This document shows, in pieces, positions 1,124 to 50,012 of a stretch of DNA of 64,000 nucleotides. The first letter of the stretch is position 1; each line of letters opens with the position of its first letter. The stretch lies in assembly GCA_014621425.1 (NCBI GenBank), contig JAANBB010000045.1, positions 105,513 to 169,512 of the forward strand. The letters run 5' to 3'. This stretch comes from Cylindrodendrum hubeiense. Lineage: Eukaryota > Ascomycota > Sordariomycetes > Hypocreales > Nectriaceae. The notes under the pieces were generated by a model. It was not told the origin of the DNA, did no database searches, and saw nothing but the letters and a program-made list of their open reading frames with translations. The translations under genes and the position numbers were made by a program.

Positions 1124-2338
1124 ATGGCTCCTGCGGGGTGTTTGCTGCCTCCATCGAGCAGCCTGCCGCCTTTATCGACGTTGCAAAAACTCACCGAGGA
1201 ACAAATCCTCTCGGCGCTCCAGGGCTTATCCGCTCTCTATTGCCCGCTGCCCGCCTCCGTTGCCTTCAAGTTGAGCCCAGAAAACAACAGTCTTGAACAT
1301 CTTGCGCCGCCACCACTCGTCGACTCTGGTTACACATCTGGTGTCGAAGACGACAGTCAGGATGTCGAGAACGTAGAGCAAAGCCTCGACGCACTCCGTG
1401 CGGACGGGTTTGAGCGCAATTTTGTAGAGCGCTGGTTGACAGGCTTCATGGCGCGAGCATACGACGTCCCGGGTCTGAGCTCAGAAGATGCGCGGGATCG
1501 TGCCCTTGATCAAGCTTCTTGGGTTCTTGAGTCCTTTGTGGCCAACACAGCCGACGACGACGAACTGGACGACGAACACACCCACTTCACGCGCGAATTC
1601 TCTTTCAATTTGTCCGTTCCCGGGAGCCAAGAAGAGGTCCCTGTCCAAGTGCAACTCAACGATGGACTGGCGGGCAAAAACTCCACCGACTGCGACGATG
1701 TGGGCCTGCAATCCTGGGGTGCATCTATTGTCCTCTCCGACCTGATGTGCGCCGAGCCTTCGCGCTTCGGTCTCACACAACCAAGCCTCGGCACTTCACC
1801 ACGCATCATCGAGCTAGGAGCAGGAACCGGACTTGTCAGCCTGGTGCTTGGAGCCATGCTACCTCACTTGGGAACTACAACGTCGGACGTAATTGCCACG
1901 GATTACCACCCGGCAGTGCTTGAAAACCTACGGACCAACATCGCAGCTAACTTTCCTTCCAACGGCCCGGTGGCCATGCACACCTCTCTTCTCGACTGGT
2001 CTGCACCGGTACTAGACTCGCCGCTGGATCTTCCCGCCGACATGCTGATTGCAACGGACGTGGTCTACGCACCTGAGCACGCAATATGGCTGCGCGACTG
2101 TGCGACTCGCCTTCTTTCTCCAGACGGAGTCTTCTGGCTACTCGTCACTGTTCGCCAGAATGGTAAATTTGAGGGGATTAGCGACACCGTCGAGGCGGCG
2201 TTTGCCACAACGGATCGCCCCAGGGGCAAGGATGGGCGCCTACTCACTATTCTCGACAGCGAGAAACTGGAGAAGCGGAGTCGAGTGGGACGGGGGGATG
2301 AGAGTGGGTATAGGCTATTTAGGGTCGGTTGGGCATAG
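1124..2338 (+). CDS. SAM-dependent protein methyltransferase, family 16 (EFM2/FAM86-like)
   Basis: A single-exon gene of 404 residues. The C-terminal half is a Rossmann methyltransferase of the family-16 lysine methyltransferase type: the preceding conserved block VGLQSWGASIVLSDLM (about 193-208), motif I ELGAGTGLVSL (230-240), an acidic residue after strand 2 in TDYHPAVLENL (259-269), and the post-strand-4 motif TDVVYAPEH (311-319) in place of the family DVVY/D. Family members methylate lysines on translation factors and other proteins. The length and the 190-residue helical N-terminal extension resemble yeast Efm2, which modifies eEF2, but that assignment is an inference. The Met at 1124 is the first in the frame that keeps the whole homologous region; a short upstream exon cannot be excluded. 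Confidence 0.8.
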   Translation: MAPAGCLLPPSSSLPPLSTLQKLTEEQILSALQGLSALYCPLPASVAFKLSPENNSLEHLAPPPLVDSGYTSGVEDDSQDVENVEQSLDALRADGFERNFVERWLTGFMARAYDVPGLSSEDARDRALDQASWVLESFVANTADDDELDDEHTHFTREFSFNLSVPGSQEEVPVQVQLNDGLAGKNSTDCDDVGLQSWGASIVLSDLMCAEPSRFGLTQPSLGTSPRIIELGAGTGLVSLVLGAMLPHLGTTTSDVIATDYHPAVLENLRTNIAANFPSNGPVAMHTSLLDWSAPVLDSPLDLPADMLIATDVVYAPEHAIWLRDCATRLLSPDGVFWLLVTVRQNGKFEGISDTVEAAFATTDRPRGKDGRLLTILDSEKLEKRSRVGRGDESGYRLFRVGWA

Positions 2339-2938
2339 ACATAGAATACATAGACAGGGGGTGTCATATACGATAGACATGACGTAGATAGAATTCACGA
2401 CGCATAGATCGGCTCAGCATAGGGCCAAATAGACAACGACACAATAGAACAAGCATCTTATATTGCAAACCAAATCCATGAGTCAAGCCCAGTAATGATC
2501 CATCATTGATATGAGCGTCTTAATAGCAGTGTGAAGTAGCTTTGTCCCTCATTAGCTCACTGACATCAGTCTTCTTTGTTACTTATCACAGCCTCGTATA
2601 GGTCCCAGATCGATTGCTTGCAGTGAAGCGCTGAACATGCACTCCATTCTGATAAACGCCACCAAAAACAACACTCAATCTCCAAGACCGAGCTGGTTTC
2701 AAGTGTCACCAAAGGAAATCACTCATCTCATCATTGTTGAAATTTTCAATTAATCATATAACTGCTCAACACTATATCAATCCCCAATTCTGGTCGCCTT
2801 CTCGACCGTCATTAATAGCCTTCCATATATACCTGAGACAATCCCACAACAGACCCAACACTTCTCATCATTATCAAAGTCCTCAGTTGTTTTCCATAAA
2901 ACAATATCAGCATTGGTTCTAATCACAAACTGACAGCC
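2339..2938. other. Intergenic region
   Basis: 600 bp without a recognisable gene. The right part (about 2800-2935) has a TATATA stretch near 2825 followed by CA/CT-rich sequence, which looks like a promoter and leader for the small reading frame at 2939. Confidence 0.4.
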
Positions 2939-3112
2939 ATGAACTCTATCAAATCCTCCAAGACGCTCACCGAGCAGAGAGTTGCGGTCGACGATCCCTC
3001 AGGTATTGCTGGGCCGTTATGCGGCTGCTATTGCGGTTGCCGCCAGGTTATCAAGCATCCGACGTCACTCATCTGCACTCACTGCATTATCTACTGCTAT
3101 ACGGACAGTTGA
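2939..3112 (+). CDS. Possible small cysteine-rich (metallothionein-like) protein
   Basis: A 57-residue frame starts with ATG in a fair fungal context (ACAGCCATGAA) about 115 bp after a TATATA element and a CT/CA-rich leader. The second half carries seven cysteines in two clusters: alternating CGCYCGC at residues 28-34 and CTHCIIYC at 46-53. Alternating C-X-C and C-X2-C patterns are typical of metallothioneins and small metal-binding proteins, but the spacing matches no family I can name. There is no signal peptide. It lies tail to tail with the DJ-1-like gene, 137 bp away. The frame is short, so chance is a real alternative, and an intron could change the C-terminus. Confidence 0.3.
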   Translation: MNSIKSSKTLTEQRVAVDDPSGIAGPLCGCYCGCRQVIKHPTSLICTHCIIYCYTDS

Positions 3113-3249
3113 TAAAATATTCAGTGAGATTCACCTTCCTCCGAGTTATCTCATCAGTATTGCTAAAGAATCGAGTGCTGATTGGTGCTGGGGCCATGAT
3201 TACTATTTGCATTCTGCGGTAGCTAGGGGCAAATGAGATAAGGAGATAG

Positions 3250-4279
3250 CTAAGAGAAACTTTTGACCAGATCCACCATCTTCCGCGCCATTTCTTCCGT
3301 ATCACCAGGGAATCGGGCGCTGATGTAGTTGTATTGCTCGTCTTCCACCACAAATCTACGCGTGAAGCGCTCGTTAGGGATCATGGACAGAAATCTCATC
3401 AGCAGAAACACTTACGGGGACAATCCAATGCTGCTTTTATACTGCTTCTCGGGTTCCTTCAGGCACTTCTTAATCTGGTCATAGATGTCAGTTCAGACAA
3501 GTCACAAACAAACAGTAACAATAGCCGTCAGGTTTGTGCTCACCGATTCCTCAACGTTCTCGGTGCCGGCACCATACGTCTTGTAGTAATCTCCCAGGAC
3601 GATTCGAGTTCCCCAATAGGCGACTTGCTCAAATCGAGCAGGTAGTGTCGCAGTACAACACTCGCTAATCACGCTTTGGCCATCGGCGCCTTTAGCATTA
3701 GCCAGAACGAGTACGCCATGACAGATGGCCCCGACGGCCTTGACACCGTCTGGTTTGCGGGTCTTGGGGAAATAATGTACCAACAACGCATGCACTGTGG
3801 GAGAGTCTAAGATTTGGCGAACCGCCTTGTCGTGGCCACCTGGCAGAAAAACGAGAGAGAACGGATCCAACGAGAAGCCCGGAGCAGACCACGCGAGCGG
3901 ATGCTGGCACTCTTCCGACGCGATCATCTTAGCGTAATCTTGTACAACAGATTTCTTGGCGCCCTACCAAACGATAATCCTTTGTCAGCGGGATTGAGGG
4001 CCCAATACATCACAGTTGAGATCTATTCGATGCGGTAGCTTACAAGGAGCTTCTGGCCCAATCCCTGGTGCAGGATTTTATCACACTCCGGTGCGTTGCC
4101 GTTCTCCGTGGCAAACTGCACATCGAATCCGGCATCTTTGAATGCGATGTAGGGCACCGTAGCCTCTACCATTACAATTCATTGAGTCGGTCTGAAGCAT
4201 TGACACTGAGGATCCCCAACGTACCAGTAGGCTCGTGGCCATAATCGGCCATGAGGATGAGAACTTTAGGCGTCGTCAT
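3250..4279 (-). CDS. DJ-1/PfpI (Hsp31-like) family protein
   Basis: Five exons (4279-4225, 4165-4044, 3963-3544, 3474-3416, 3355-3250) join in frame to 253 residues. The N-terminus KVLILMADYGHE is the first strand of the class I glutamine-amidotransferase fold. The conserved glutamate region is HEPTEATVPYIAF, and VFLPGGHD precedes the nucleophile elbow GAICHG with the reactive cysteine. Length and the long middle helix region fit the yeast Hsp31/ThiJ-PfpI group, whose members act as glutathione-independent glyoxalases or stress chaperones. All introns are 50-81 bp with GT-AG ends. No targeting signal is seen, so a cytosolic stress-response role is likely. The exact activity is not provable from sequence. 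Confidence 0.85.
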
Positions 4280-6274
4280 TCTGGGCAACTAATTTAAAGC
4301 GGGAGAAAGAATTTACCGGAAGCCTCCGGATAGAGAAAAGACGATGGTCGAGTATGTTCGTCACTCGAGGTTTCGCTGCAACCATCTGATGGAATGATGA
4401 CAAGATGACACGTGATGCCCCGTTATCTTGTGGATTGACCTTGATAAGATAAGATAGCGGTTGATAAGATAAGGGGCTCTCTCGTCCTCGTTTTCTCCAA
4501 AACCTCCACATAGAGACTACCCTGGGGTATATCATTCAGAGCATGATAAGTTACCCCCAATGCCTCCGAGTTTTATAGAAATTTTTAATTGTATTTTGCT
4601 GCATCCACTTTAAACTCAGTATTTTCTAATGAATATTTAAGCTTGGGGGTGTCACCGAATTTAGACACAATTCTTGCTTCTCCTGACCACGCCTGCATAT
4701 CAATGAGAACTGCGATTTCTACCCTTCAAGCTCCTTATTTCCACTACGATCCATATGTTCACTGGGTAACCGTCAAATACTCTTTGGCGCATGGACACGC
4801 GTCCCCTTTCGCATACTGAAGGCCTGGAACTGAAGTGTCTCACCTGGCATCATACTTTCGGGGTTCCTAAGACACCGAATAGGTCCACAATGCCATGCCA
4901 CTCTAATATGCCATGAGTAATGTCCGAAAATGTGATGGGGCATTGTGAAGTAATTAAAATACACTCTCACGATGTACGCTTTCGACATTGGGTGATTGAT
5001 AGCACCATCTCGCATCGACTTGAGTTCTCTATTGTCAGCATCAGCGTACTCCCGTGTCCCATTTCATTTCGTTACTAATTCATCTCAACAGTCTTCAACC
5101 CCTCTGCTGTGAATCCTAGATCGGCAGAGGACGACGATCAAAAACGGTGGTGTTGAGAACTGAACCACCCGCCGCCATAAAAATGCGGGGGATCGACTGC
5201 AACATTTCCACCGTGGTCAAAAATGGCTCGGGGAGCCCGAGAAACCTCCCAAAAGGACTAGCTGCCGCAAGGACCGAGACCTTGGCTGGCCGCTTTGGGT
5301 TTTTGTGTCTTAGGGGCGAGATCCATCATCGATCTGACTTAGGAATGTCCCGACCAACGGACGGCCAAGGACGGGAGCTAGAGCCTAGATAAGACACAAT
5401 TTCAAAGGTAGTTCCGCTGGCTTTTGATTCGAGGTCAAGTTTCCGAAAGAGCCGTTCTCGCTTCGCACTTCCTGTCGCGGGAGCCCAGACTCCACAACGG
5501 CGGAGCCAATATTCCTTAAATCGGCGTCCACATACCATCCAAAGTCCCAACTCGGCCAAGTCCAACGCTTCCTGCGAACCTTGCCTCAAAACCTGCTCGT
5601 AGCTGGAATTCGGACTAGGAAGAATGTGATTGCGGGAACAAAGGCGAGACCCTGCTATCCCCACACAATGGCTGGCCGCGGCTCGCACGAATAATTATAT
5701 CCACCCGACTTGGGCGGCGTTGAATCATGACCAGAGCCTATTGGGTTTATGATCGACATGGAGTCACGTGAAGTCATGGTAATTGGACCAGCATCGGAGA
5801 GTTTCTGCTGCCGGATTCTCCGTTCATGCCGGGCAGCCGAGCTCGAGCCTAGATCTCGATTTGCTAGGAATTAGTCATTTCCAAGAAAGACTAATGAGCC
5901 ACTCCCACCTGTGCCCACCCCGAATAAGGAATTCTGCTCGCCGATTTCGCACCCATAGTATTCCCGCACCAAAGGCAAAGGATAGTGCTCGAAGCGTTGG
6001 CGAGGGAAGTACCTCGACGGATTCAGGAATGGGCGACTAGTCAGTTCCCCCGACGAAAACGGGCACACGCGGGCCCTGCCTGAACTCTGCTGGCTGCATT
6101 CGCCACAAAGATTGATTGAATTATGCTTAGACGGTCGGGGCCCGATCGGGACAAAGTTAATTCAGAGGATCTCAGCGATATGCAGGTATGTGACCCGGGG
6201 ATACTCAGGCAGGTTGGCTAATTGCTTGGCAACCTGCCGGAAGCAACGCAGATCTACAACGGCCATCCGACTTG
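4280..6274. other. Long intergenic region
   Basis: About 2 kb with only short frames in all six directions and no family I recognise. Local composition changes from A/T-rich (4550-5050) to mixed. The right end holds the promoter of the HsbA-like gene. Confidence 0.4.
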
Positions 6275-38798: not shown

Positions 38799-40125
38799 TT
38801 AAGCATATCTGGTGGATTCGTACTTGATGTTCCATCCAGAAATAGGTACCACACACAAGGCTGTGCCAGGAACCAGGCTCTCAGTGCACTTACGCTCATC
38901 CAGAGAAGGATTAATGTCTTGCATGATGTTATTATAGCAGGTGAAATTCGGTGTGCAAATACTATGGCAAGTGTCCGATTCGGTGACAACGTGCCACTTG
39001 CCACACATCAGCGTCGTGCCTTCAGCCACGTCAACGTCTTCTGGCGGCGAAACGCGCAAGATGTTGGGTCCGTTTACGCTGCTTATCTTGCGGAGGGGGG
39101 CGGAGTAGTCGGCAGGGGTGCTGGTGTCGCCCAAGGAAGAGATGCAAACCGACTTGCCGTAAAAGTCGGTGCCCGTCTGGAGGTTGGAGCAGTCCCGACT
39201 GATCCACGAGTTGTAGAACCGAAGGGTGTCCCAGCTGATACCGAGGGAAGTCTCTATGCCAAAGCAATTTTCGTCTGGCTTCACGTAGTACGTCTTGCAC
39301 GTCATGGGGAGACAGAGCTTGATGTCTGTGGGAATATTGTGGCAGTCGCCAATGGCTTCTTGATTCCCCATGTATAAAAATGCACCCGAGACATTGTAGG
39401 CCTTGGAGATGGAGTCGCATGTGTCTCCCTTCTTGGTTGTGTAGTAGTTTTCGGTGAGGCAAAACTCTTCAACTGGCTCCTCTTGCTTGAGAGGCGGCGG
39501 GATTTCCGTTGGCCCTGAGCCTCCGCACGTCTTGTACACGTACTCCAGCTCCTCTTTGTAGTACTCGTCGTAGATGGAGTACTGCGAGGATTGCATCATG
39601 GCGAGGCGGCGAACATAGCACGGGTGGCAGAGCTCCGCGCGGGGCAGATCCTCGCCCTCATTGACGTCAGAGAACCCATCAATGATGTCTGGTAATCAGA
39701 GTCAGCGCTATTCCATTTTTCGCATTCGGTGACTTACCATTGCAATATTCCTCCGTCTCGGGATCTTTGATACAGGTCTCATTCCAGCCGGCCCAGATAT
39801 AACCGCCGGATCGCGTAGGAACTGAGGCACTGGACCCAAAGGTCTCGCCCGTACAGTCGCTGGAAACCGTGCCAAACCACTCGCGAAGTGACCCAGAGCA
39901 GGTGTCAACGCAGATCTCGTCGGTCAGCGTAACGTTCTCGAGAGACCCTTGATAGCCCAACCGCATAAAGGAGCGTATGTACGGATTGCAGGCGACGTCG
40001 GCCGACAAGGCTTTGACGCAGGCGTCCCCAATATTGTAATGCTCAAGATCAGTGGCGTCGTAGATGGTAAAGGCACCTGTGCCCAGAAAAAGGCCAAAGG
40101 CAACAAAACGCTTGAGGGTAGCCAT
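38799..40125 (-). CDS. Secreted LysM protein with long Cys-rich N-terminal domain
   Basis: Two exons (40125-39738, 39688-38799) encode 425 residues. I chose ATG at 40125 because a signal peptide follows directly (RFVAFGLFLGTGA); an in-frame ATG at 40194 would bury it. Residues about 20-190 are a Cys-rich region without LysM (DACVKAL, CVDTCSGSL, CHPCYVRRL) as seen in fungal LysM proteins that neighbour killer-toxin-type chitinases. Three LysM-like units follow: CLTENYYTTKKGDTCDSI, CKTYYVKPDENCFGI and CGKWHVVTESDTCHSI, each closed by a distal cysteine. It is divergent from the CBM18-GH18 gene across a 760 bp promoter, suggesting co-expression and joint action on chitin. Confidence 0.85.
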
Positions 40126-40888
40126 TATGTGTCGGTAGCCACTTGCTGGCTGAACGGGTGAAACTGAAAGTCTGTCTTTAGAATTGGCGACCAAGATACA
40201 CCCTGAATGAATCTGCGATTCAGTACTTGCAGGCCTCAGACGATTTACCCTTGGACTGATCCTGCGCTGGGCTTATTTTATCCGCATGATAATAATGCAG
40301 GGTTGAGGACGATGTGATCTTTCTCCTGCAGCTGAGTCTTCACGATTCGTCCACGCGCCAGTCTGATCTTAACGGTCGAGAACTATGCCGTGATGGAATA
40401 CGAGGTGATGGTACGAGGCAATTTGCATTAGCCTAGCGGGTACCAACACTGCTGAAGAGAGCCGCAAGGGACGAGATTCATTTTCGTCCCCAGCCCCTGT
40501 CTCGCGACTTTTTAGACCAACTTCTGTGTCACGATGTCATGCTGTGTTGGTTGTTGGTTTTTAAGCTCGGCGACTCCACGAGGCTAGCAGGGGTCACATA
40601 CCCATCATCGCCAGGGGATCAAAGGTCCCTTGCAGCTTCCGGTTACAGGCAGAGGGCCGAGCGAATCGGTTGGTTGCTGCCAATGTTCTCCGAGGGTCCG
40701 AATGGAGAGACGAGTGGAGAACATCCAACAGAGCTGGCGAAATACAACGAACGATGTGTTTCCCGCCTGAGAGTACATATATTCTTGGCAGTGGTATATG
40801 GTGACCTCCAAGACGGGGTTCTAACCCATATTCACCCAAGTCATTTCCTCTTTTCCCTCAACGCTGTTGGCTTCACACTCTATCCAAT
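40126..40888. other. Divergent promoter of LysM and GH18 genes
   Basis: 763 bp shared by the two divergent genes. No gene is seen. Confidence 0.5.
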
Positions 40889-43406
40889 ATGCATTTAGGC
40901 ATTTGGTTCTTTTCGCTGCTGCTGTGCCTTTGCGTGGCAGCTGACGATACCGCCTGCAGTGCCACCAGTCGCTGTAAAGAAGGTTGTTGTAACAAGTCTG
41001 GCGCCTGTGGCTTTGGCCCTGATTGTAGGTTTGCTATCGATGGGATGACAAGACTAGGGTTGACTGTGAATAGATTGTGGAGCGGATTGTCGCTTCGACT
41101 GCAGTAGAAAGTCCGAATGCAACCCTGGCTTTAGTGTCGAATGGGCCGAAAACGAAAAATGCCCGTTGAATGTCTGTTGCTCCAAGTATGGATTCTGTGG
41201 AGTAAGTGAAGTTCCCGAGCTTCCCTACGGATGAAGAAGTCGCTAATATACAGTAGACGACTGAAGATTTCTGCGGCTCGAAGAAAGTTAAACGCCCGAG
41301 TTGCGGCAAAGATAGCGGCGTATCTCGTGTTGTTGGCTATTTTGAGGGATGGGTAAAGAACCGCCGTTGTGAGACCTTCTGGCCTGAACGAATCCCCATT
41401 GGGTTGTACACTCACATCAACTTTGCTTTTGCGACGATTAATCCCCGTACTTTTAGAGTTCAGCCCAATAACGATTTCGACGACAACCTCTATAAACGGG
41501 TTATAGTAATGAAGAAGAAAGACCCAGATCTGAAGGTCTTCATTGCTATTGGCGGGTGGACCTTTAATGATCCTGGCCCGACGGCTACTATCTTCTCGGA
41601 TATCGTGGCTTCTGTGTCATATCAAAAGACTTTTATCTCATCTCTCATGTCCTTTATGAGCACCTATGGATTCGATGGGCTTGATTTAGACTGGCAATAT
41701 CCACAGGCCAAGGACCGTTCTGGGCGGGATGCTGATTTTGTCAACTTCCCCAAGTTCATGGCCCGACTGAAGAAGGCCATGGATGCGGGAGGTAAAGGAC
41801 TCACCATTACGCTTCCCGCATCGTACCTATACCTCCAACACTTCGATGTCAAGAAGCTAGTAGGTTCGCCCCTCGACTACCTACCATGTCAGCGTACTGA
41901 CAGTTGAATTCAGGCAGACTCAGTCGACTTTTTCAATATTAGGTAAGTTGTGTACTTTGACTGTTGCAAGATTCGTAGCAAGGACTGACTTGGTTGGGCA
42001 GGTCCTATGACCTGCACGGTGCTTGGGACCAAGACAAAGAATGGACGGGCAGCTTCCTCAACGCCCACACCAACCTCACGGAGACTGAGCTCGCCCTTGA
42101 TCTGCTCTGGCGCAATGATATCGACCCCGACCAGGTGGTCATGGGCCTGAGCTTTTACGGGCGCTCATTAACAGCCGCAGATTCATCCTGTATGAAGCCA
42201 GGCTGCAAGTTTGACGAAGCCGGAAAACAAGGCAAATGTACCCTAGAAAGGGGCATTTTACTCAACTCGGAGATTGATGCCTTGGTCAAGGAGAACAATC
42301 CCGGTATTGAGTTCTACGAGAAGGAAGCAGTCAAGGTGGCTACTTGGGGCGATCAATGGATCTCTTTTGATGATGCCGAGACGCTCAAGCTGAAGATCGA
42401 CTATGCACAGTCGCGCTGTCTCGGGGGTGTCATGGTCTGGGCCATCAGTCATGATACTAAGGACGCCAAGTATAATGAGGCGCTGGCCACGATATTAGAC
42501 CGTCCCACCACGGGCGGCACCATTGAAAAGTTCCAGAATAAGCAATGCCGATGGACCAACTGCAAGGAAAGCTGTCCCACGGGGTGGGTGAACGTCCCGC
42601 GATCGGATGGCGGCGCGCGCAACAAGAAGCACGAGAAGATGTGGGACGAGACAGGCTGTGGCGGCGACGGTGCCCGCAGCTTCTGCTGCCCGCCGGGCGA
42701 ACAGCTGCCGACGTGTGGATGGTATGGCTTCAATAATGGGAAATGTGGCAAAGGCTCGTGTCCCAGCGACATGGTGGAGATTGGGTCCAGCCAGATGTAC
42801 TGCCACAACAAGCAGAACTACGAGTCGGCCTGCTGCACGACCAACGTCAAGAGCATGAAGGTATATGGCACCTGCGAATGGGGCGCTTATCCCGATTGCA
42901 ACAGCCAAGAGGACTGCCCCGGACCCGACGAGAATAAGGACACGCTCATGGCCGGCTCCCCCTCAGGCTCGGGCGGCGGCGAGTGCAACGTCCTCAAGAA
43001 CGGGCTCGGGCTGAACATGCCGGGCACGCAGCAGCGCAAGTATTGCTGCGACGCCAGCAACCCTGACCTGCGCATCGACGACTGTCAGTGGTTCAAAGAT
43101 GTTGGCCCTGTGCCGGCGGGTGCATCCAATAGCTTCTGCAGGAGCGGATGCCCTCCGGACCGCGTCCGCGTCGCTGTCGATACCTTGACCAATGTCTGCA
43201 GTGCGGCCGGCCTTGGCGGCATGGCGCTGTGCTGCAAGACCAGCTTCAGCGACAAGGACGACATCGAGGTCGAGAACCTCAAGTTGGATGCGTTCAAGAG
43301 CGCAATGGAAAGCTGGGCCAAGGATCACGCTGTCCCCAGACGTGCAGATCTAGAAGACGTAGTGGCAAACTCGTCAACGTCCACGGAGCGGGCTGCGAGA
43401 GATTAA
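40889..43406 (+). CDS. CBM18-GH18 protein of the killer-toxin-like (subgroup C) type, catalytic Glu replaced
   Basis: Five exons (40889-41024, 41074-41201, 41257-41859, 41914-41942, 42002-43406) encode 766 residues. A signal peptide (1-17) is followed by one or two hevein-like CBM18 chitin-binding units (CCNKSGACGFGPDYCG; CCSKYGFCG). The GH18 barrel has AIGGWTFND, FDGLDLDWQYP (227-237) and SYDLHGAWD. The family motif DxxDxDxE normally ends in the catalytic Glu; here it is Gln235, codon CAA at 41695-41697. After the barrel comes a Cys-rich region (about 480-725) as in subgroup C chitinases. These chitinases are often paired with LysM genes, as here. The C-terminal extension of the subgroup is missing. 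Likely a chitin binder with little or no hydrolysis, unless another residue compensates. Confidence 0.85.
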
Positions 43407-44142: not shown

Positions 44143-44904
44143 CTATCTACTTAGTTTGCTCCAGTTACGAAAATGGTGGATTTCTCGGTGTTGAGTGTCA
44201 TAGTGATGTGACCAAGGCCGCACTTCGGAGCAGCCGCTGGTTGGGGGGACGGCGTCATCCCCAGCCCAAATACATCCTTCGAGACCCTCCTCAGCGCCGT
44301 CGTAATGCAGAATCCTATGAGGGTGGTCCTCACCAAGGATGAGAGACTGCCAGAGCTCCAACAAATAACCTGTTGGGATTCTCATCCAGCCCCAGTACTC
44401 TCCTTTCTCTTCCCAGTCGTAGGCAACCGCCTTGACAACGAACTCGCCGTTGGCAATGTCTGTGAGCACCGCTTCATCGGCGAGGAGAGCGAAATGAAAC
44501 ATGCGCCCTGCCATGGTCTTTTCAAAACTGTCGTGCTCATAGAGGCATATTTCCCTAATACCGCGAACGTCAAGTCCATCGAGCAGTGAGACATACTCGC
44601 GTGTATCAAGGCGGAAGAGCTTCCTGAGTCTTTCTATGTCGACCCTGTATTCGTCCCCGTATTCGTCCTCGTATTCGATTTTGTCATCGTAGTGTGAAAG
44701 TGCGAGCATTGTTTGTCGCCTTAAAGCGCCCAGAAGCATATCCCAGTACTGGTCGGATTCAGGGGCGTAGTATGTGCGGTAAATGGTGAAGCCCCAATTA
44801 CCGTAGTATTTAAAGTTCTCTGGGGACTCCCTATCCCTCTGTTGCTTCGTAGCTCCACGGGGAGGCCGGTAGAGGAGATTAATTAGCTCTGAAACTGTTA
44901 TCAT
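44143..44904 (-). CDS. Uncharacterised fungal protein with WGFTIYRTYY block
   Basis: A single-exon gene of 253 residues. No signal peptide or TM segment. The N-terminal region contains NWGFTIYRTYYAPESDQYW, a block I know from many uncharacterised fungal proteins, followed by a charged middle (EYEDEYGDEY), an FHFALLADEAVLTDI stretch and a Trp-rich C-terminus (YWGWMRIPTGYLLELW). No enzymatic motif is recognised. It lies downstream of the gasdermin gene on the same strand, 830 bp away, but nothing shows that it belongs to that module. Confidence 0.7.
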   Translation of the reverse strand: MITVSELINLLYRPPRGATKQQRDRESPENFKYYGNWGFTIYRTYYAPESDQYWDMLLGALRRQTMLALSHYDDKIEYEDEYGDEYRVDIERLRKLFRLDTREYVSLLDGLDVRGIREICLYEHDSFEKTMAGRMFHFALLADEAVLTDIANGEFVVKAVAYDWEEKGEYWGWMRIPTGYLLELWQSLILGEDHPHRILHYDGAEEGLEGCIWAGDDAVPPTSGCSEVRPWSHHYDTQHREIHHFRNWSKLSR

Positions 44905-45733
44905 ATTCGAATGCTTCAGTTAAGTGAATAGGGAAGGTGTACTTGAAAATGTGCTGAAGCTCCAGGGGAATAATGCAGAGTGGGTAGAAGAAGAAAAGGA
45001 AAAGGGGCGTCTGTTGCCTGATGCTATCGATTTTATTATCCCTGCCTTAGATGGAATTCGGTTTATTAGAATATACTGTCTTACGCAGTAACATTAACGG
45101 GTATGCTCAAGCCTGGCTTATACCAGGTATATGATAGGCGATAGGTTGGGGTTTTCTAAGGAATAAACCGCAGGAGGTTCGATTATGGCGCTCCTTAGCT
45201 TATGAGCGTGTTACGGGTCATAATGTCCAAGCAGTCTGAGGCGTAATGAGTCAGGGTGATTATGGTAGTCATGTTGTATTGATAGCTGAGGAGCCAGATG
45301 TATAGTGTCATCAGGTCTTCTTAGGTTCTATATGCTAATGGGTTCGTGTAGTCGAGCGGGGTACGTTCGATTACTTGATGAAAGTGGAACAAGGTGTGCG
45401 ACTTTTGGGCAGCACATGACATTCGACGTGGGTATTCTACCAGCCTTGACCTCCAGGTCACGGCCTGGGCTGTAAAATTAAGATGTTATACCAGCAAAGC
45501 TCGCCCAACTCCCTCATGTCACAAAGTCAACTAGAGCACCAGAGCAGAATTCACCTTGTCCTTATAGACACACATAACCTCCCCAACCTAGGTTACACCC
45601 TTTAAAACCTACAGCTACCTATAGTACTTAACAAGATACACCATCAGCAAGCAATCCGGCACCACTGCTTATAGGATCATGAATATATATAAGTAATAAT
45701 GTATTCATCCCAAATACATCAGACTGATTAATG
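44905..45733. other. Intergenic region
   Basis: About 830 bp, no convincing frames and no recognisable gene. Confidence 0.45.
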
Positions 45734-46680
45734 CTACTCTTCAGAATCTTTAAGCTTCAGAACAGCACACCGGACAACTGTATCACCCTCCGTCAGCTCA
45801 TCCTCATCATAGCCTTCATCTTCAGCCTTAGACTCTTCCTGTGACGTAATGACAAGTTCTGGAACGCTTTCCACTAGCTTATTGATCTTACCGTCCAGCA
45901 ACGCGCCTTTGATGTAGTCGTCACTGTTATCCACGGCATGCGTCTTTCGACTCACATTCACCTTGCGTACCCGAAAGGCAAACACAAAATCGCTGCTGTC
46001 CTGCCATGATGTGCCCTGTGTCGTCTCCCGCCGCCCCTCGACGCCTGGCTCAAAACCCAGAGGCACGGCGCCGCCACTCCACACCGTGCCGTCGACCGAG
46101 ATTGCCGCGTTACCGCCATGCGATCGGGAAGTCTGCGACTTGGCCTTGGCGCCGTAGACAGTCTTGAGTCCGGTGATGATGTACACGGGTTTGCGATAGC
46201 GGCTTCGCTCCAGGTGGGCCCGTACTGCGGGCGCCTCGATACACTTTTGGATGTAGTCGTCTTTCGGGACGAACTGCGTGGTTTCAACATGTTTAAAAGC
46301 GTAAGTCTCCTCGTTGCTAAGGATCGTCAAGAATTGTTGCTACGAGGCTTCATGCTGCGTATGGGTGCCAGACTTGGCGGCGGGTTTGTCAGTGAATCTG
46401 CTCACCTGTGCTTCCAATCGGCGCCAACGTCTACACCGAGGCCGAGAATGCTCAAAAAGGTTGTCAGGATGGAAAACCCTCCTTCTCTGAGCTTTTCCTT
46501 GGAGTATTCGACCTCATACTTGTCCGATGAGAAGATGTCGTCTGTGGTCGGTAGCGGCGCCGTGTATAGCGGCTGCTCTGGCCTTTCCACCGATGTGAGA
46601 ACGTTGCCGAGCTGGATGGGGCCTTCTGGAGGCCAGTCCCACGTGGGGGCGTAGTAGAAGTAGAAGACACTGTTTGCCAT
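45734..46680 (-). CDS. Fungal gasdermin (HET-Q1 / RCD-1 type pore-forming protein)
   Basis: Two exons (46680-46406, 46316-45734) encode 285 residues without signal peptide. The N-terminal block WDWPPEGPIQLGNVLTS, the hydrophobic stretch FSILTTFLSILGLGVDVGADW, and ETYAFKHVETTQFVPKDDYI plus RYRKPVYIITGLKTVYG match the fungal gasdermin family typified by Podospora HET-Q1 and Neurospora RCD-1. The C-terminus (about 245-285) is a short acidic tail, the size of the inhibitory tail that is clipped in HET-Q1. In that system cleavage frees an N-terminal domain that oligomerises into plasma-membrane pores and kills the cell. Splice choice: only the acceptor at 46317 restores the frame from the donor after 46406. 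A subtilisin-type protease lies immediately upstream on the same strand. Confidence 0.85.
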
Positions 46681-46997
46681 TAGAACTAGGTATGATTTCT
46701 TGAAATGTAAGGGAAGGAAATAAATGAAGAATAATCAAGCTGACCGCTGATGTTTATTCAGCCTTACGAGAATACCCCGCATCGACGCCACTTGGCCGCC
46801 AATTAGGCAGTGGCTGTTGAGGGTAATCATTTCTTGCATCTTACGACATCTCACCAAGTCATCCAAAATGTGGGTTATCACTGTGGTGTACGAGATAATT
46901 TCCAAGTGGCTATTGAGTTTATGGTATTGTGAATGGTATATAACTACAGATTAATTCGTATGCCGTGTATTGTAGAAGTTGCAGCAGCCCGATCCCC
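46681..46997. other. Gasdermin promoter / protease 3' region
   Basis: 317 bp between two co-directional genes. It should contain the protease terminator and the gasdermin promoter; no clear TATA box is seen. Confidence 0.45.
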
Positions 46998-49900
46998 TTA
47001 ACCCTTCAAAAGCTCGCTAATTGTTGCATCCACAAACTTCTTGTCCTTGCCAAATAGGTTATCCGAGAACTTGCTCAACGCAATGTAATCATAACCATCC
47101 CGACTCATCGACTGCTGCGTCTTTTGAGAAATCTTCCTAAATACTTCTTTCATCCTCGACTGTCGCTTCAGCATGTCTGCCTGGTCTGCCAGATGGAGTC
47201 TGGCGTACTGCAGCAAGAATGCAGCAATCCCCACCGCAATGGGTGTTGCATATGAGGTGCCCGACTTGTATTGAACACACTCCGGGTTCGTCCGCGTGTC
47301 ACAGAGGCTTACTGGCCATGCCGACTGCACTGCCTCGCCTATGGTTGCGATGTTCAAATCATGAGCAAGTGCCGTCGGGCTGAACTTGGAGCGATTGCCA
47401 TCCGAGTCGGTCGCGTGAACGCAGATGACATGTGGATCGCGGGCGGGATATGCGCGATCAAGATTTGCACCGCTGTTTGAGGCGGCAGCGAATACCAGGA
47501 CGTTCTTCGAATGTGCATACAAAATCGCTCCTTCGAGCTCTCCGTAGCCGTCAACCTGGTTCGTTGGATACCCAAAGGACATGGAGATGACATCGACACC
47601 CCAATCGTCCACGGCACACTTTATCGCCTTCAATGAAGATCAGTTACTCGTTATTTAACAAATCTCTACGATCGAATACATACCTCTGCAACTACTCCGG
47701 GAGGGGACAGTTCCCTGTCAGCAATTTTGGCAATATACAATTCTGCGTCAGGGGCATAGTCCACAATAAGGCTTGCTGTAAAAGTACCGTGGCCATCGTG
47801 GTCATGAACCGCCTTTTTGAATTTGCTAGTCCAGTTGCGCTTGAGTTTTATCTGCCCCGTGTCTAGCGCATTGTGAGACTCGTCGGCACCAGAGTCCAGC
47901 ACCGCAATCTTGACTGGAAGCTGGGGAGGACCTTGCAGATATGGATCGATACAAGACCTGTAGACAGCCTGATATTTTTCTTTCCAGTATAAATATTTCT
48001 CCACCCTATTTTTCCGAGTTAGTCAAGATGTTAAGTGTAAGAGAAACCAAAGACTCAGGCAGCAAGGGCCTGGACATTCAAGGACTGTGAACATACTCTG
48101 CAGGGGAATGAGTTTCAGATGAGATCTCGTCATCGTAAAATTTGGCTGCCTCGTACTCAAAATTAGGGGTCAACGGCCGGCTCAGACCCGGCGAGTTGGG
48201 GTACCAGTTCAAGGCAACAAAAAGCGGTTGTTGAGCACCCGCCCGCGGTCCAGCCAATTGCCGGTATTGCTGAACAAAAGGTTCTTCAGCTAGAGATGCT
48301 CTCTCCGGCTGACTCTCTGACGGTACGTTTGGAATGGTTCTCCCCCAGGCACCTACATCTACCTGTTCGGCTATTTTATCGAGATCTTCCATTGTGATAA
48401 ACGTAAAGGCATCACAAAGATCGTCTTCCAACGGCCGGGTAATTTCTTCATATACTGTGACCCTCAGCATCTCGTCGTCCAATCGTTGGCCCGTCTCGTT
48501 CTCCCATGTCCTCGGATCGAGACACTTCTCTATGGCGTAATAGAATGGTGAATTTTGTGGAATCTCGCGCTTGTATTTATCAAATATCGAAGCCACATCG
48601 AGCGACCTTTTGCAGCTCTCCGTTCCTTGTGGTAGCTCAAATCCACGGTTTCTCTCCAGGACATCAAACGGCGTCGCAAAATATAGCTCCATTAATAATA
48701 TAGCAAGGCTAACCAGAGCGGGGAATGGGTGCTCAAAATCATCCGGATCTATGTCATCCGGGTCCAGGTCGTCTGGATCGAAGTCGTCAGGGTCGAAATC
48801 ATCGTTAAACACATCTTTGTTGTACTGGTTCCCCGACTCCTTGTCACAGGCTCCTTTAGAGACAATTTCTTGTGCAAGATCTGTCTGGATAAATGGTCTC
48901 AGTGGAATTGTAGAGGATGATGTCTGGAAAAAGAGGATCTTTGAGGAATCCCACGTTGGTTGGAGCCAAGGCGTGCCATGCAAATGCAGCACAGCGTAGC
49001 TGAGTAGCACGGCCAGGATACGTTTGGTCTTCTCCGTCAAAGGTCGAGAGTCTTGGTTGATGAGTTGTTGAAGCGATATTGGGGGTTTTTCTCTGTCGAC
49101 CTGAAAACAACTGTCCTTGGATCGCAACTTAAAAAGTTGATCTTTCTCAACCTTCAGCTCCAGTCGTTGCGATATTTTGCTCTGCATCTTGTGTATCTCG
49201 TTGCAGAGCTTCTTGACTGGCATTGGCTTGTACCCTAACTTCGGAGGGGCGCCCAGTATCTCGCCGTTGATGGCGAACTGCACGACGCTCTTTCTGACGG
49301 CATTGACATGAACCTTTTGTAAAACCTGGCGTAAAGAAAGGAATATGTCAAAGTCGTCGGTGTTGTCAAGGTCTGGCTTTCGGTATGTACCGAGACACAG
49401 TCTGGCATCCAGCTCGTGAGTTTGGTGGCACTCACACTTGGTACATCCGGTGAGAGCCTTGAAGACAGAATGGGCCACACCAGATATGGTGTAGGATGGC
49501 TCGGGCCTGGTCTTGGGGGGTGAGCGATCGTCGGCAGTCCAGTTCGAATCGTCTTCGGGATATTTTGAAATGAGATCTTCTTCCCACAAATCAATTTCCT
49601 CCTCAAACTGCTGCCTGAATTGCTGCTCGGTGAATTTCTCGACATTCATTGACTCGTGGGCAAATTCAACCCTGGCGGCCTGGCTTCGGTTCCGCAGCTT
49701 ATGCCAGCAGTGGTTGAGCGCGCTCTGCCGTGGATGAGTGCATCTTGCATCCTTCTGCGTTTCCTGTGGTGTCTGCAAAGCGACAATGAGCGACTCAAAG
49801 ATATCCAAAATCCGGATAATAAGCTCGTTGCCTGGCAACAGGGCAGATCTAATGCGCGCGACGTGATCGGAAACAAGGAGACAATGAGTCCGCAGATGGG

Positions 49901-50012
49901 AGTAGAACTTCTTCAACTCTCGACTTGGCTGGGTGCCTCTGAGAAGAGTGGAAATCTCCCGGATTGAACTGGATGATGTCAGAACCAGGTCGGCATTCAG
50001 ACTGCCCGACAT
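46998..50012 (-). CDS. DUF7580-like / subtilisin (S8) fusion protease next to gasdermin (HET-Q2-like)
   Basis: Three exons (50012-48097, 48005-47684, 47627-46998) encode 955 residues. Residues 1-640 lack a signal peptide and resemble the fungal DUF7580 regulatory region (LSYAVLHLHGTPWLQPTW at 337-354 and the ALVSLAILLMELYFATP block), with helical N-terminus and an acidic D-P-D-D-x repeat at 403-425. Residues 665-930 are a subtilase with a complete triad: Asp676 (IAVLDSG), His711 (DGHGTF), Ser871 (GTSYATP), plus oxyanion Asn797. No propeptide or secretion signal is seen, so it should act in the cytosol. By analogy with Podospora HET-Q2, it probably cleaves the neighbouring gasdermin when its N-terminal part senses a trigger. 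The join across each intron is in phase. Confidence 0.85.
48738..48806 (-). repeat. 15-bp coding repeat (D-P-D-D-x) in the protease gene
   Basis: Four to five tandem 15-bp units encode an acidic run of D-P-D-D plus a hydrophobic residue (residues 403-425). Such repeats can vary in number between strains and create a highly charged loop inside the DUF7580-like region. Confidence 0.7.

What the first reader, a model, noticed from the sequence alone, without database searches (positions are those of the whole stretch)
45734..50012. Gasdermin and DUF7580-like/subtilisin fusion protease form a two-gene cell-death module
Seen: a 285-residue HET-Q1/RCD-1-type gasdermin with a short acidic tail lies 317 bp downstream of a 955-residue protein on the same strand that ends in a subtilase with intact Asp676/His711/Ser871. 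Known: Podospora HET-Q1 is activated by proteolysis by the subtilisin-like HET-Q2 encoded by a linked gene, and fungal gasdermins are often linked to protease genes. Inferred: here the protease carries a large DUF7580-like N-terminal part that could be the sensor, making sensor, protease and pore one compact unit.
Basis: partly seen in the sequence, partly recalled or inferred. Interest (0 to 1): 0.9.

Follow-up and report, generated by a model that had tools for sequence, protein, structure and literature searches.

The report
Fungal gasdermin and linked sensor-protease
A fungal chromosome carries side by side a pore-forming cell-death protein (a gasdermin) and a protein-cutting enzyme, fused to a probable sensor, that most likely switches it on; the arrangement is a solid further example of a recently described fungal suicide system rather than a new system.

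Summary
On the minus strand, a two-exon gene (46680..45734, 285 aa) encodes an RCD-1/HET-Q1-type gasdermin; 317 bp away, a three-exon gene (50012..46998, 955 aa) encodes a helical N-terminal region, DUF7580 (E 5e-39) and a subtilase (E 3e-28) with D676/H711/S871. The gasdermin profile reaches RCD-1 (4e-16) and HET-Q1 itself (4.5e-7). The pairing is not local chance: 39 of 119 listed gasdermin relatives share a contig with a listed protease relative, and 7 of 10 gasdermin genes found in this genome lie beside a DUF7580-subtilase fusion. Best mechanism: the protease removes a short acidic tail; in 47 aligned sequences the tail's only invariant residues, G229-A230, lie near where HET-Q1 is cut. 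That DUF7580 is the sensor stays inferred, but a paralogue carries a PNP_UDP domain in place of the subtilase, with no gasdermin found in the 10 kb read. Weak profile evidence suggests a dead-kinase fold. A 2025 review already mentions gasdermin-linked proteases fused to kinase-like domains. Cleavage and killing could not be tested. Verdict: new member of a known kind.

The parts
46998..50012 (-). Protease gene, 955 aa; exons 50012-48097, 48005-47684, 47627-46998; introns 91 and 56 bp
   Evidence: relatives 69% and 70% identical in two Neonectria species
49479..50012 (-). N-terminal region, residues 1-178: helical bundle in the model of relative P0123 (helices within 6-148)
   Evidence: no Pfam match to this part of the window protein at E <= 1
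48417..49478 (-). DUF7580 domain (PF24476), residues 179-532; weak kinase-fold similarity without the catalytic Asp residues
48735..48794 (-). Four tandem DPDDx units (residues 407-426) in a loop that is of low confidence in the model of P0123; number varies among relatives
   Evidence: loose pattern count 0 to 5 in 85 relatives, 0 in 26 of them; pLDDT 40-50 at about 381-420 of P0123
47199..47914 (-). Subtilase (Peptidase_S8) domain, residues 670-889, spanning exon 2 and exon 3
47894..47896 (-). Catalytic Asp676
   Evidence: D in 85 of 85 aligned relatives
47789..47791 (-). Catalytic His711
   Evidence: H in 84 of 85, one gap
47475..47477 (-). Oxyanion-hole Asn797 (ASNSG)
   Evidence: N in 84 of 85, one Lys
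47253..47255 (-). Catalytic Ser871 (GTSYATP)
   Evidence: S in 83 of 85, two gaps
46681..46997 (-). 317-bp intergenic stretch between the two genes
45734..46680 (-). Gasdermin gene, 285 aa; exons 46680-46406 and 46316-45734, intron 89 bp
   Evidence: 195 relatives at E <= 1e-3; fold and profile matches to gasdermins
45896..45916 (-). Conserved island Y226-I-K-G229-A230-L-L232 at the end of the pore domain; proposed cleavage region
   Evidence: G and A in 47 of 47, position 232 Leu 42/Phe 4/Tyr 1 of 47
45734..45907 (-). Short acidic tail, residues 229-285, net charge -11; proposed inhibitory peptide
   Evidence: tail net negative in 47 of 47 aligned sequences, the window's included

Best explanation
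The locus is a two-gene cell-death switch of the HET-Q1/Q2-like kind. Shown: one gene encodes a fungal gasdermin with a short acidic tail; the neighbour encodes a subtilase, most like intracellular subtilisins and with a complete catalytic set, fused behind a helical region and DUF7580; the pair recurs across many fungi and several times in this genome. Inferred: in resting cells the N-terminal/DUF7580 part holds the protease off. A signal sensed by that part (non-self after cell fusion, a virus, or damage; unknown) frees the protease, which cuts the gasdermin near the invariant Gly-Ala/Leu232 island. That removes about 53 residues (about 5.8 kDa), and the pore domain then inserts in the plasma membrane and kills the cell.
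Against: No cleavage or death assay. 2 of 9 DUF7580-S8 loci (C601, C281) show no gasdermin in the 10 kb read, so some fusions may have other substrates. Distance-matrix agreement between the partners (r 0.76 over 40 pairs) is not corrected for species history; within this genome r is 0.76 over 7 pairs (27 of 5040 permutations reach it) but falls to 0.37 (71 of 720) without C52. The gasdermin model is of middling confidence. The window's own pore domain has net charge -3, while 45 of the 47 aligned sequences are positive there. A second, less conserved tail site with an aromatic residue (E259-G260-Y261; G in 37, F/Y/W in 43 of 47) could be the cut instead.
Confidence: 0.8

Rival explanations
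1. RCD-1-like mode: the gasdermin is activated by meeting a different allelic form after cell fusion, and the linked protease is not its activator.
For: Closest solved relative is RCD-1, which a review says acts without cleavage (PMC12881547, passage).
Against: Linked intact protease in many species; acidic tail with an invariant island. The best stretch of the match to the RCD-1-1 chain (261 residues) ends at profile position 214 and chain residue 236, so no counterpart of the tail was seen.
Confidence: 0.08
2. The two genes are neighbours without functional link; the protease has another substrate.
For: 2 of 9 DUF7580-S8 loci here lack a visible gasdermin within the 10 kb read; 3 of 10 gasdermin genes lack a DUF7580-S8 neighbour.
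Against: Recurrent pairing in different orientations across species and within one genome.
Confidence: 0.07
3. One polyprotein, as annotated in the public record (1443 aa): protease, gasdermin and a third ORF translated together.
For: The deposited model G7Z17_g3625.
Against: It drops the protease's last residues and the gasdermin's start; each gene has its own start and stop; M1 is invariant and A2, N3 at least 90% conserved in the 47 aligned gasdermins; several orthologues are separate adjacent genes.
Confidence: 0.03

Closest known systems
HET-Q1 / HET-Q2 of Podospora anserina
   Same: Linked gasdermin (278 aa) and S8 protease; short C-terminal tail removed by the subtilase; HET-Q1 pore chain 9uv9 matched by profile (E 4.5e-7; sizes and F238 from PMC10989679 passage)
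   Different: HET-Q2 has 388 aa, so it lacks room for the about 650-residue N-terminal part found here; here the tail removed would be longer (about 53 against 40 residues)
Q2-like proteases (Q2L), multidomain
   Same: S8 protease fused to another module next to a gasdermin gene; about 80% of fungal gasdermin genes are clustered with protease genes, about 63% with S8 (PMC10197012 section 15); 'other predicted kinase-like domains' named (PMC12881547 passage)
   Different: The name DUF7580 was found in no held paper; whether it is among the 18 published architectures could not be checked (primary paper not held)
RCD-1 of Neurospora crassa
   Different: RCD-1 is activated by allelic encounter, not cleavage (review passage)
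MLKL-type helix-bundle/pseudokinase proteins
   Same: Order: helical bundle, then a domain with weak kinase similarity that lacks the catalytic Asp residues
   Different: No kinase match in PDB sequences or Pfam; the output here is a protease, not the helix bundle

Membership tests
Fungal gasdermin (fGSDM) | Homology to RCD-1 / HET-Q1 over the pore-forming domain | tested here: met
Fungal gasdermin (fGSDM) | Short C-terminal inhibitory tail removed by proteolysis | not testable with these tools
   Acidic tail and conserved island present; removal not assayed
Fungal gasdermin (fGSDM) | Pore formation and cell death | not testable with these tools
   Needs expression
HET-Q2-like (Q2L) S8 protease | Subtilase domain with complete catalytic residues | tested here: met
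   PF00082 E 3e-28; D676, H711, N797, S871; conserved in relatives
HET-Q2-like (Q2L) S8 protease | Gene within 10 kb of a gasdermin gene | tested here: met
   317 bp; recurrent
HET-Q2-like (Q2L) S8 protease | Cleaves the linked gasdermin | not testable with these tools
   Needs biochemistry or yeast co-expression
NOD-like receptor (NLR) | NACHT or NB-ARC domain | tested here: not met
   Pfam at E <= 1 gave only DUF7580 and Peptidase_S8 for the 955-aa protein
Protein (pseudo)kinase fold | Sequence or fold homology of DUF7580 to kinases | tested here: inconclusive
   hhalign P 0.016-0.046 with narrow profiles, 3.6e-4 (probability 37) with a broadened one, in register, gasdermin control probability 0.3; no PDB sequence hit at E <= 10; fold-search lists filled by subtilases

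The most novel reading that the evidence does not exclude
DUF7580 with its N-terminal helix bundle is a modular, MLKL-like dead-kinase receptor that is neither an NLR nor a repeat protein. Fungi plug different effectors into its C-terminal end: a gasdermin-cutting subtilase in many copies, and a PNP_UDP nucleosidase-type domain elsewhere. It would thus join a necroptosis-like sensor design to a pyroptosis-like output.
Probability: 0.4. Interest if true: 0.65.

Novelty: new member of a known kind. Interest (0 to 1): 0.42.

Why it matters
A review seen here in passages names the stimuli of such sensors as a major open question (PMC12881547). This genome offers nine DUF7580-subtilase fusions, seven with a gasdermin beside them, plus a natural effector swap. 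Exchanging sensors between pairs, and looking for what the DUF7580 part recognises, is therefore directly testable. The conserved Gly-Ala/Leu island gives a concrete, falsifiable cut site.

Tried and rejected
The single-sequence Pfam scan of the gasdermin gave nothing; profile searches were needed. The family name PF26164, seen beside three relatives, is not in the local Pfam. A PDB profile search with the N-terminal + DUF7580 alignment gave no hit up to E 10. Pfam scans of its 27 members gave DUF7580 in 27, NAGLU in 3 (best E 1.3e-4, place not shown, not pursued) and seven other families in one member each (best E 0.049 to 0.87); no kinase. So the kinase reading rests on profile-profile comparison and the helix/strand order of the model only; the broadened profile holds some loci twice. 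The HET-Q1 chain 9uv9 is not among the rows shown by the fold searches of the gasdermin model. A tail that co-varies more with the subtilase than with the other parts was not supported: r 0.593 with the subtilase, 0.595 with DUF7580, 0.728 with the N-terminal part. Of the 120 listed protease relatives 94 bear DUF7580 and S8, 25 bear DUF7580 alone (552-696 aa) and one DUF7580 with PNP_UDP; I do not count the 25 as a second architecture, since 24 come from metagenome sources and their lengths are near that of exon 1 (inference). One of the 39 pairs (P0099/P0192) has such an S8-less protein. Two weak gasdermin hits (C223 E 2e-4 over 45 aa with stops in frame; C496 E 0.007) were left out of the count of ten. 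P0030 and P0129 have no contig length and were left out.

Full report
The finding. Reading the minus strand, two genes lie in tandem. The first (50012..46998) has three exons and encodes 955 residues; the second (46680..45734) has two exons and encodes 285 residues; 317 bp separate them.

Linkage across species. Of 120 listed gasdermin and 120 listed protease relatives (of 195 and 230 found), 119 each have a contig length; 39 gasdermin entries share a contig length with a protease entry, and no length occurs twice within either list. I take these as same-contig pairs; 12 of the 39 also have consecutive locus-tag numbers (for example QQX98_000865/000866, AK830_g7709/g7710, PFICI_01036/01035, JDV02_009016/009017). 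One of the 39 protease entries has no S8 annotated (P0192). The pairwise distances of the partners correlate (gasdermin against subtilase r 0.759, against DUF7580 0.766, against the N-terminal part 0.850; 0 of 999 shuffles), but shared species history contributes and was not removed.

Linkage within this genome. The window is part of contig C390 of a 47.5-Mb assembly. Nine loci carry DUF7580 and S8 together: C390, C52, C319, C534, C791, C157, C46 (276-279 kb), C601 and C281. Their D, H and S motifs are readable at all nine. Five gasdermin queries gave ten gasdermin genes; both kinds of count are lower bounds, as the search scores only its best candidates. Seven of the ten lie beside one of these fusions. 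An eighth has an S8 protein without DUF7580 about 5 kb away (C46:303.7 kb). Two (C379, C268) have no S8 hit within 10 kb; C268 has a DUF7580 place about 4 kb away. C601 and C281 show no gasdermin in the 10 kb read; wider flanks were not read. Gene order differs: four pairs are tandem and three convergent, so linkage rather than co-transcription appears to be kept. Between the seven pairs the identity matrices of gasdermin and subtilase correlate (r 0.756; 27 of 5040 permutations), but much of this rests on the C390/C52 pair (r 0.371; 71 of 720 without C52).

Effector swap. Contig C5 has one 997-residue open frame that is 41% identical to residues 17-569 of the window's protein, but which ends in PNP_UDP_1 (E 2.1e-8) instead of a subtilase; the gasdermin profile found nothing in its 10 kb. 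A metagenome protein, P0174, has the same build. PNP_UDP_1 is among the Pfam profiles of NLR N-terminal domains listed in PMC9815663 (passage). This is what one expects of a modular sensor with exchangeable outputs. In this genome only C5 showed DUF7580 and PNP_UDP_1 within 10 kb of each other.

What DUF7580 may be. Profile-profile comparison with eight kinase domains of this genome aligns its 'LLSYAVLHLH...SSxILFF' stretch with the kinase alpha-E/catalytic-loop region and its 'LAVMLMELY..PF' with alpha-F (my naming of these kinase parts is recalled). P is 0.016 to 0.046 with narrow profiles and 3.6e-4, probability 36.8, when own-genome DUF7580 paralogues are added; a gasdermin profile as control gave probability 0.2-0.3. 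The His-Arg-Asp and Asp-Phe-Gly aspartates have no counterpart. PDB and Pfam searches found no kinase. I call a dead-kinase fold plausible but unproven.

Place in the literature. PMC10197012 section 15: about 80% of fungal gasdermin genes are clustered with protease genes, 63% with S8, 18 architectures. [quoted passage not shown] The primary paper is not held. 'DUF7580' occurs in no held paper. Hence: a well-supported new member of a known kind, with an architecture possibly not discussed by name. Shown: anatomy, conservation, linkage, swap. Inferred: sensing, cleavage, pore, death.

Noticed in passing
public record of this locus; P0121: The public annotation (Cylindrodendrum hubeiense G7Z17_g3625, 1443 aa) merges the protease, the gasdermin and the next ORF (44146-44919, minus) into one protein; probably a gene-prediction error.
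   Followed up: yes
L055 (C5:84001-94000), ORF 2226-5216 minus: The same N-terminal/DUF7580 part is fused to PNP_UDP_1 instead of a subtilase.
   Followed up: partly
C79, C712, C788, C786, C523, C357, C1 of the own genome: Seven of 31 DUF7580 places have a Pkinase (PF00069) place 0.9-2.9 kb away, six of them on the opposite strand: a possible second kind of linked pair.
   Followed up: no
C46:270617-310495: A CHAT protease, a DUF7580-S8 fusion with a gasdermin, and a second gasdermin with a different S8 protein lie within about 40 kb: a small cluster of cell-death genes.
   Followed up: no
window 48735-48794: Four DPDDx repeats in the DUF7580 region; a loose form of the pattern occurs 0 to 5 times in 85 relatives. 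Purpose unknown.
   Followed up: partly
window 38802-43403: A LysM-domain ORF (38802-39695, minus) lies near a glycosyl hydrolase 18 (chitinase-type) ORF (41979-43403, plus).
   Followed up: no
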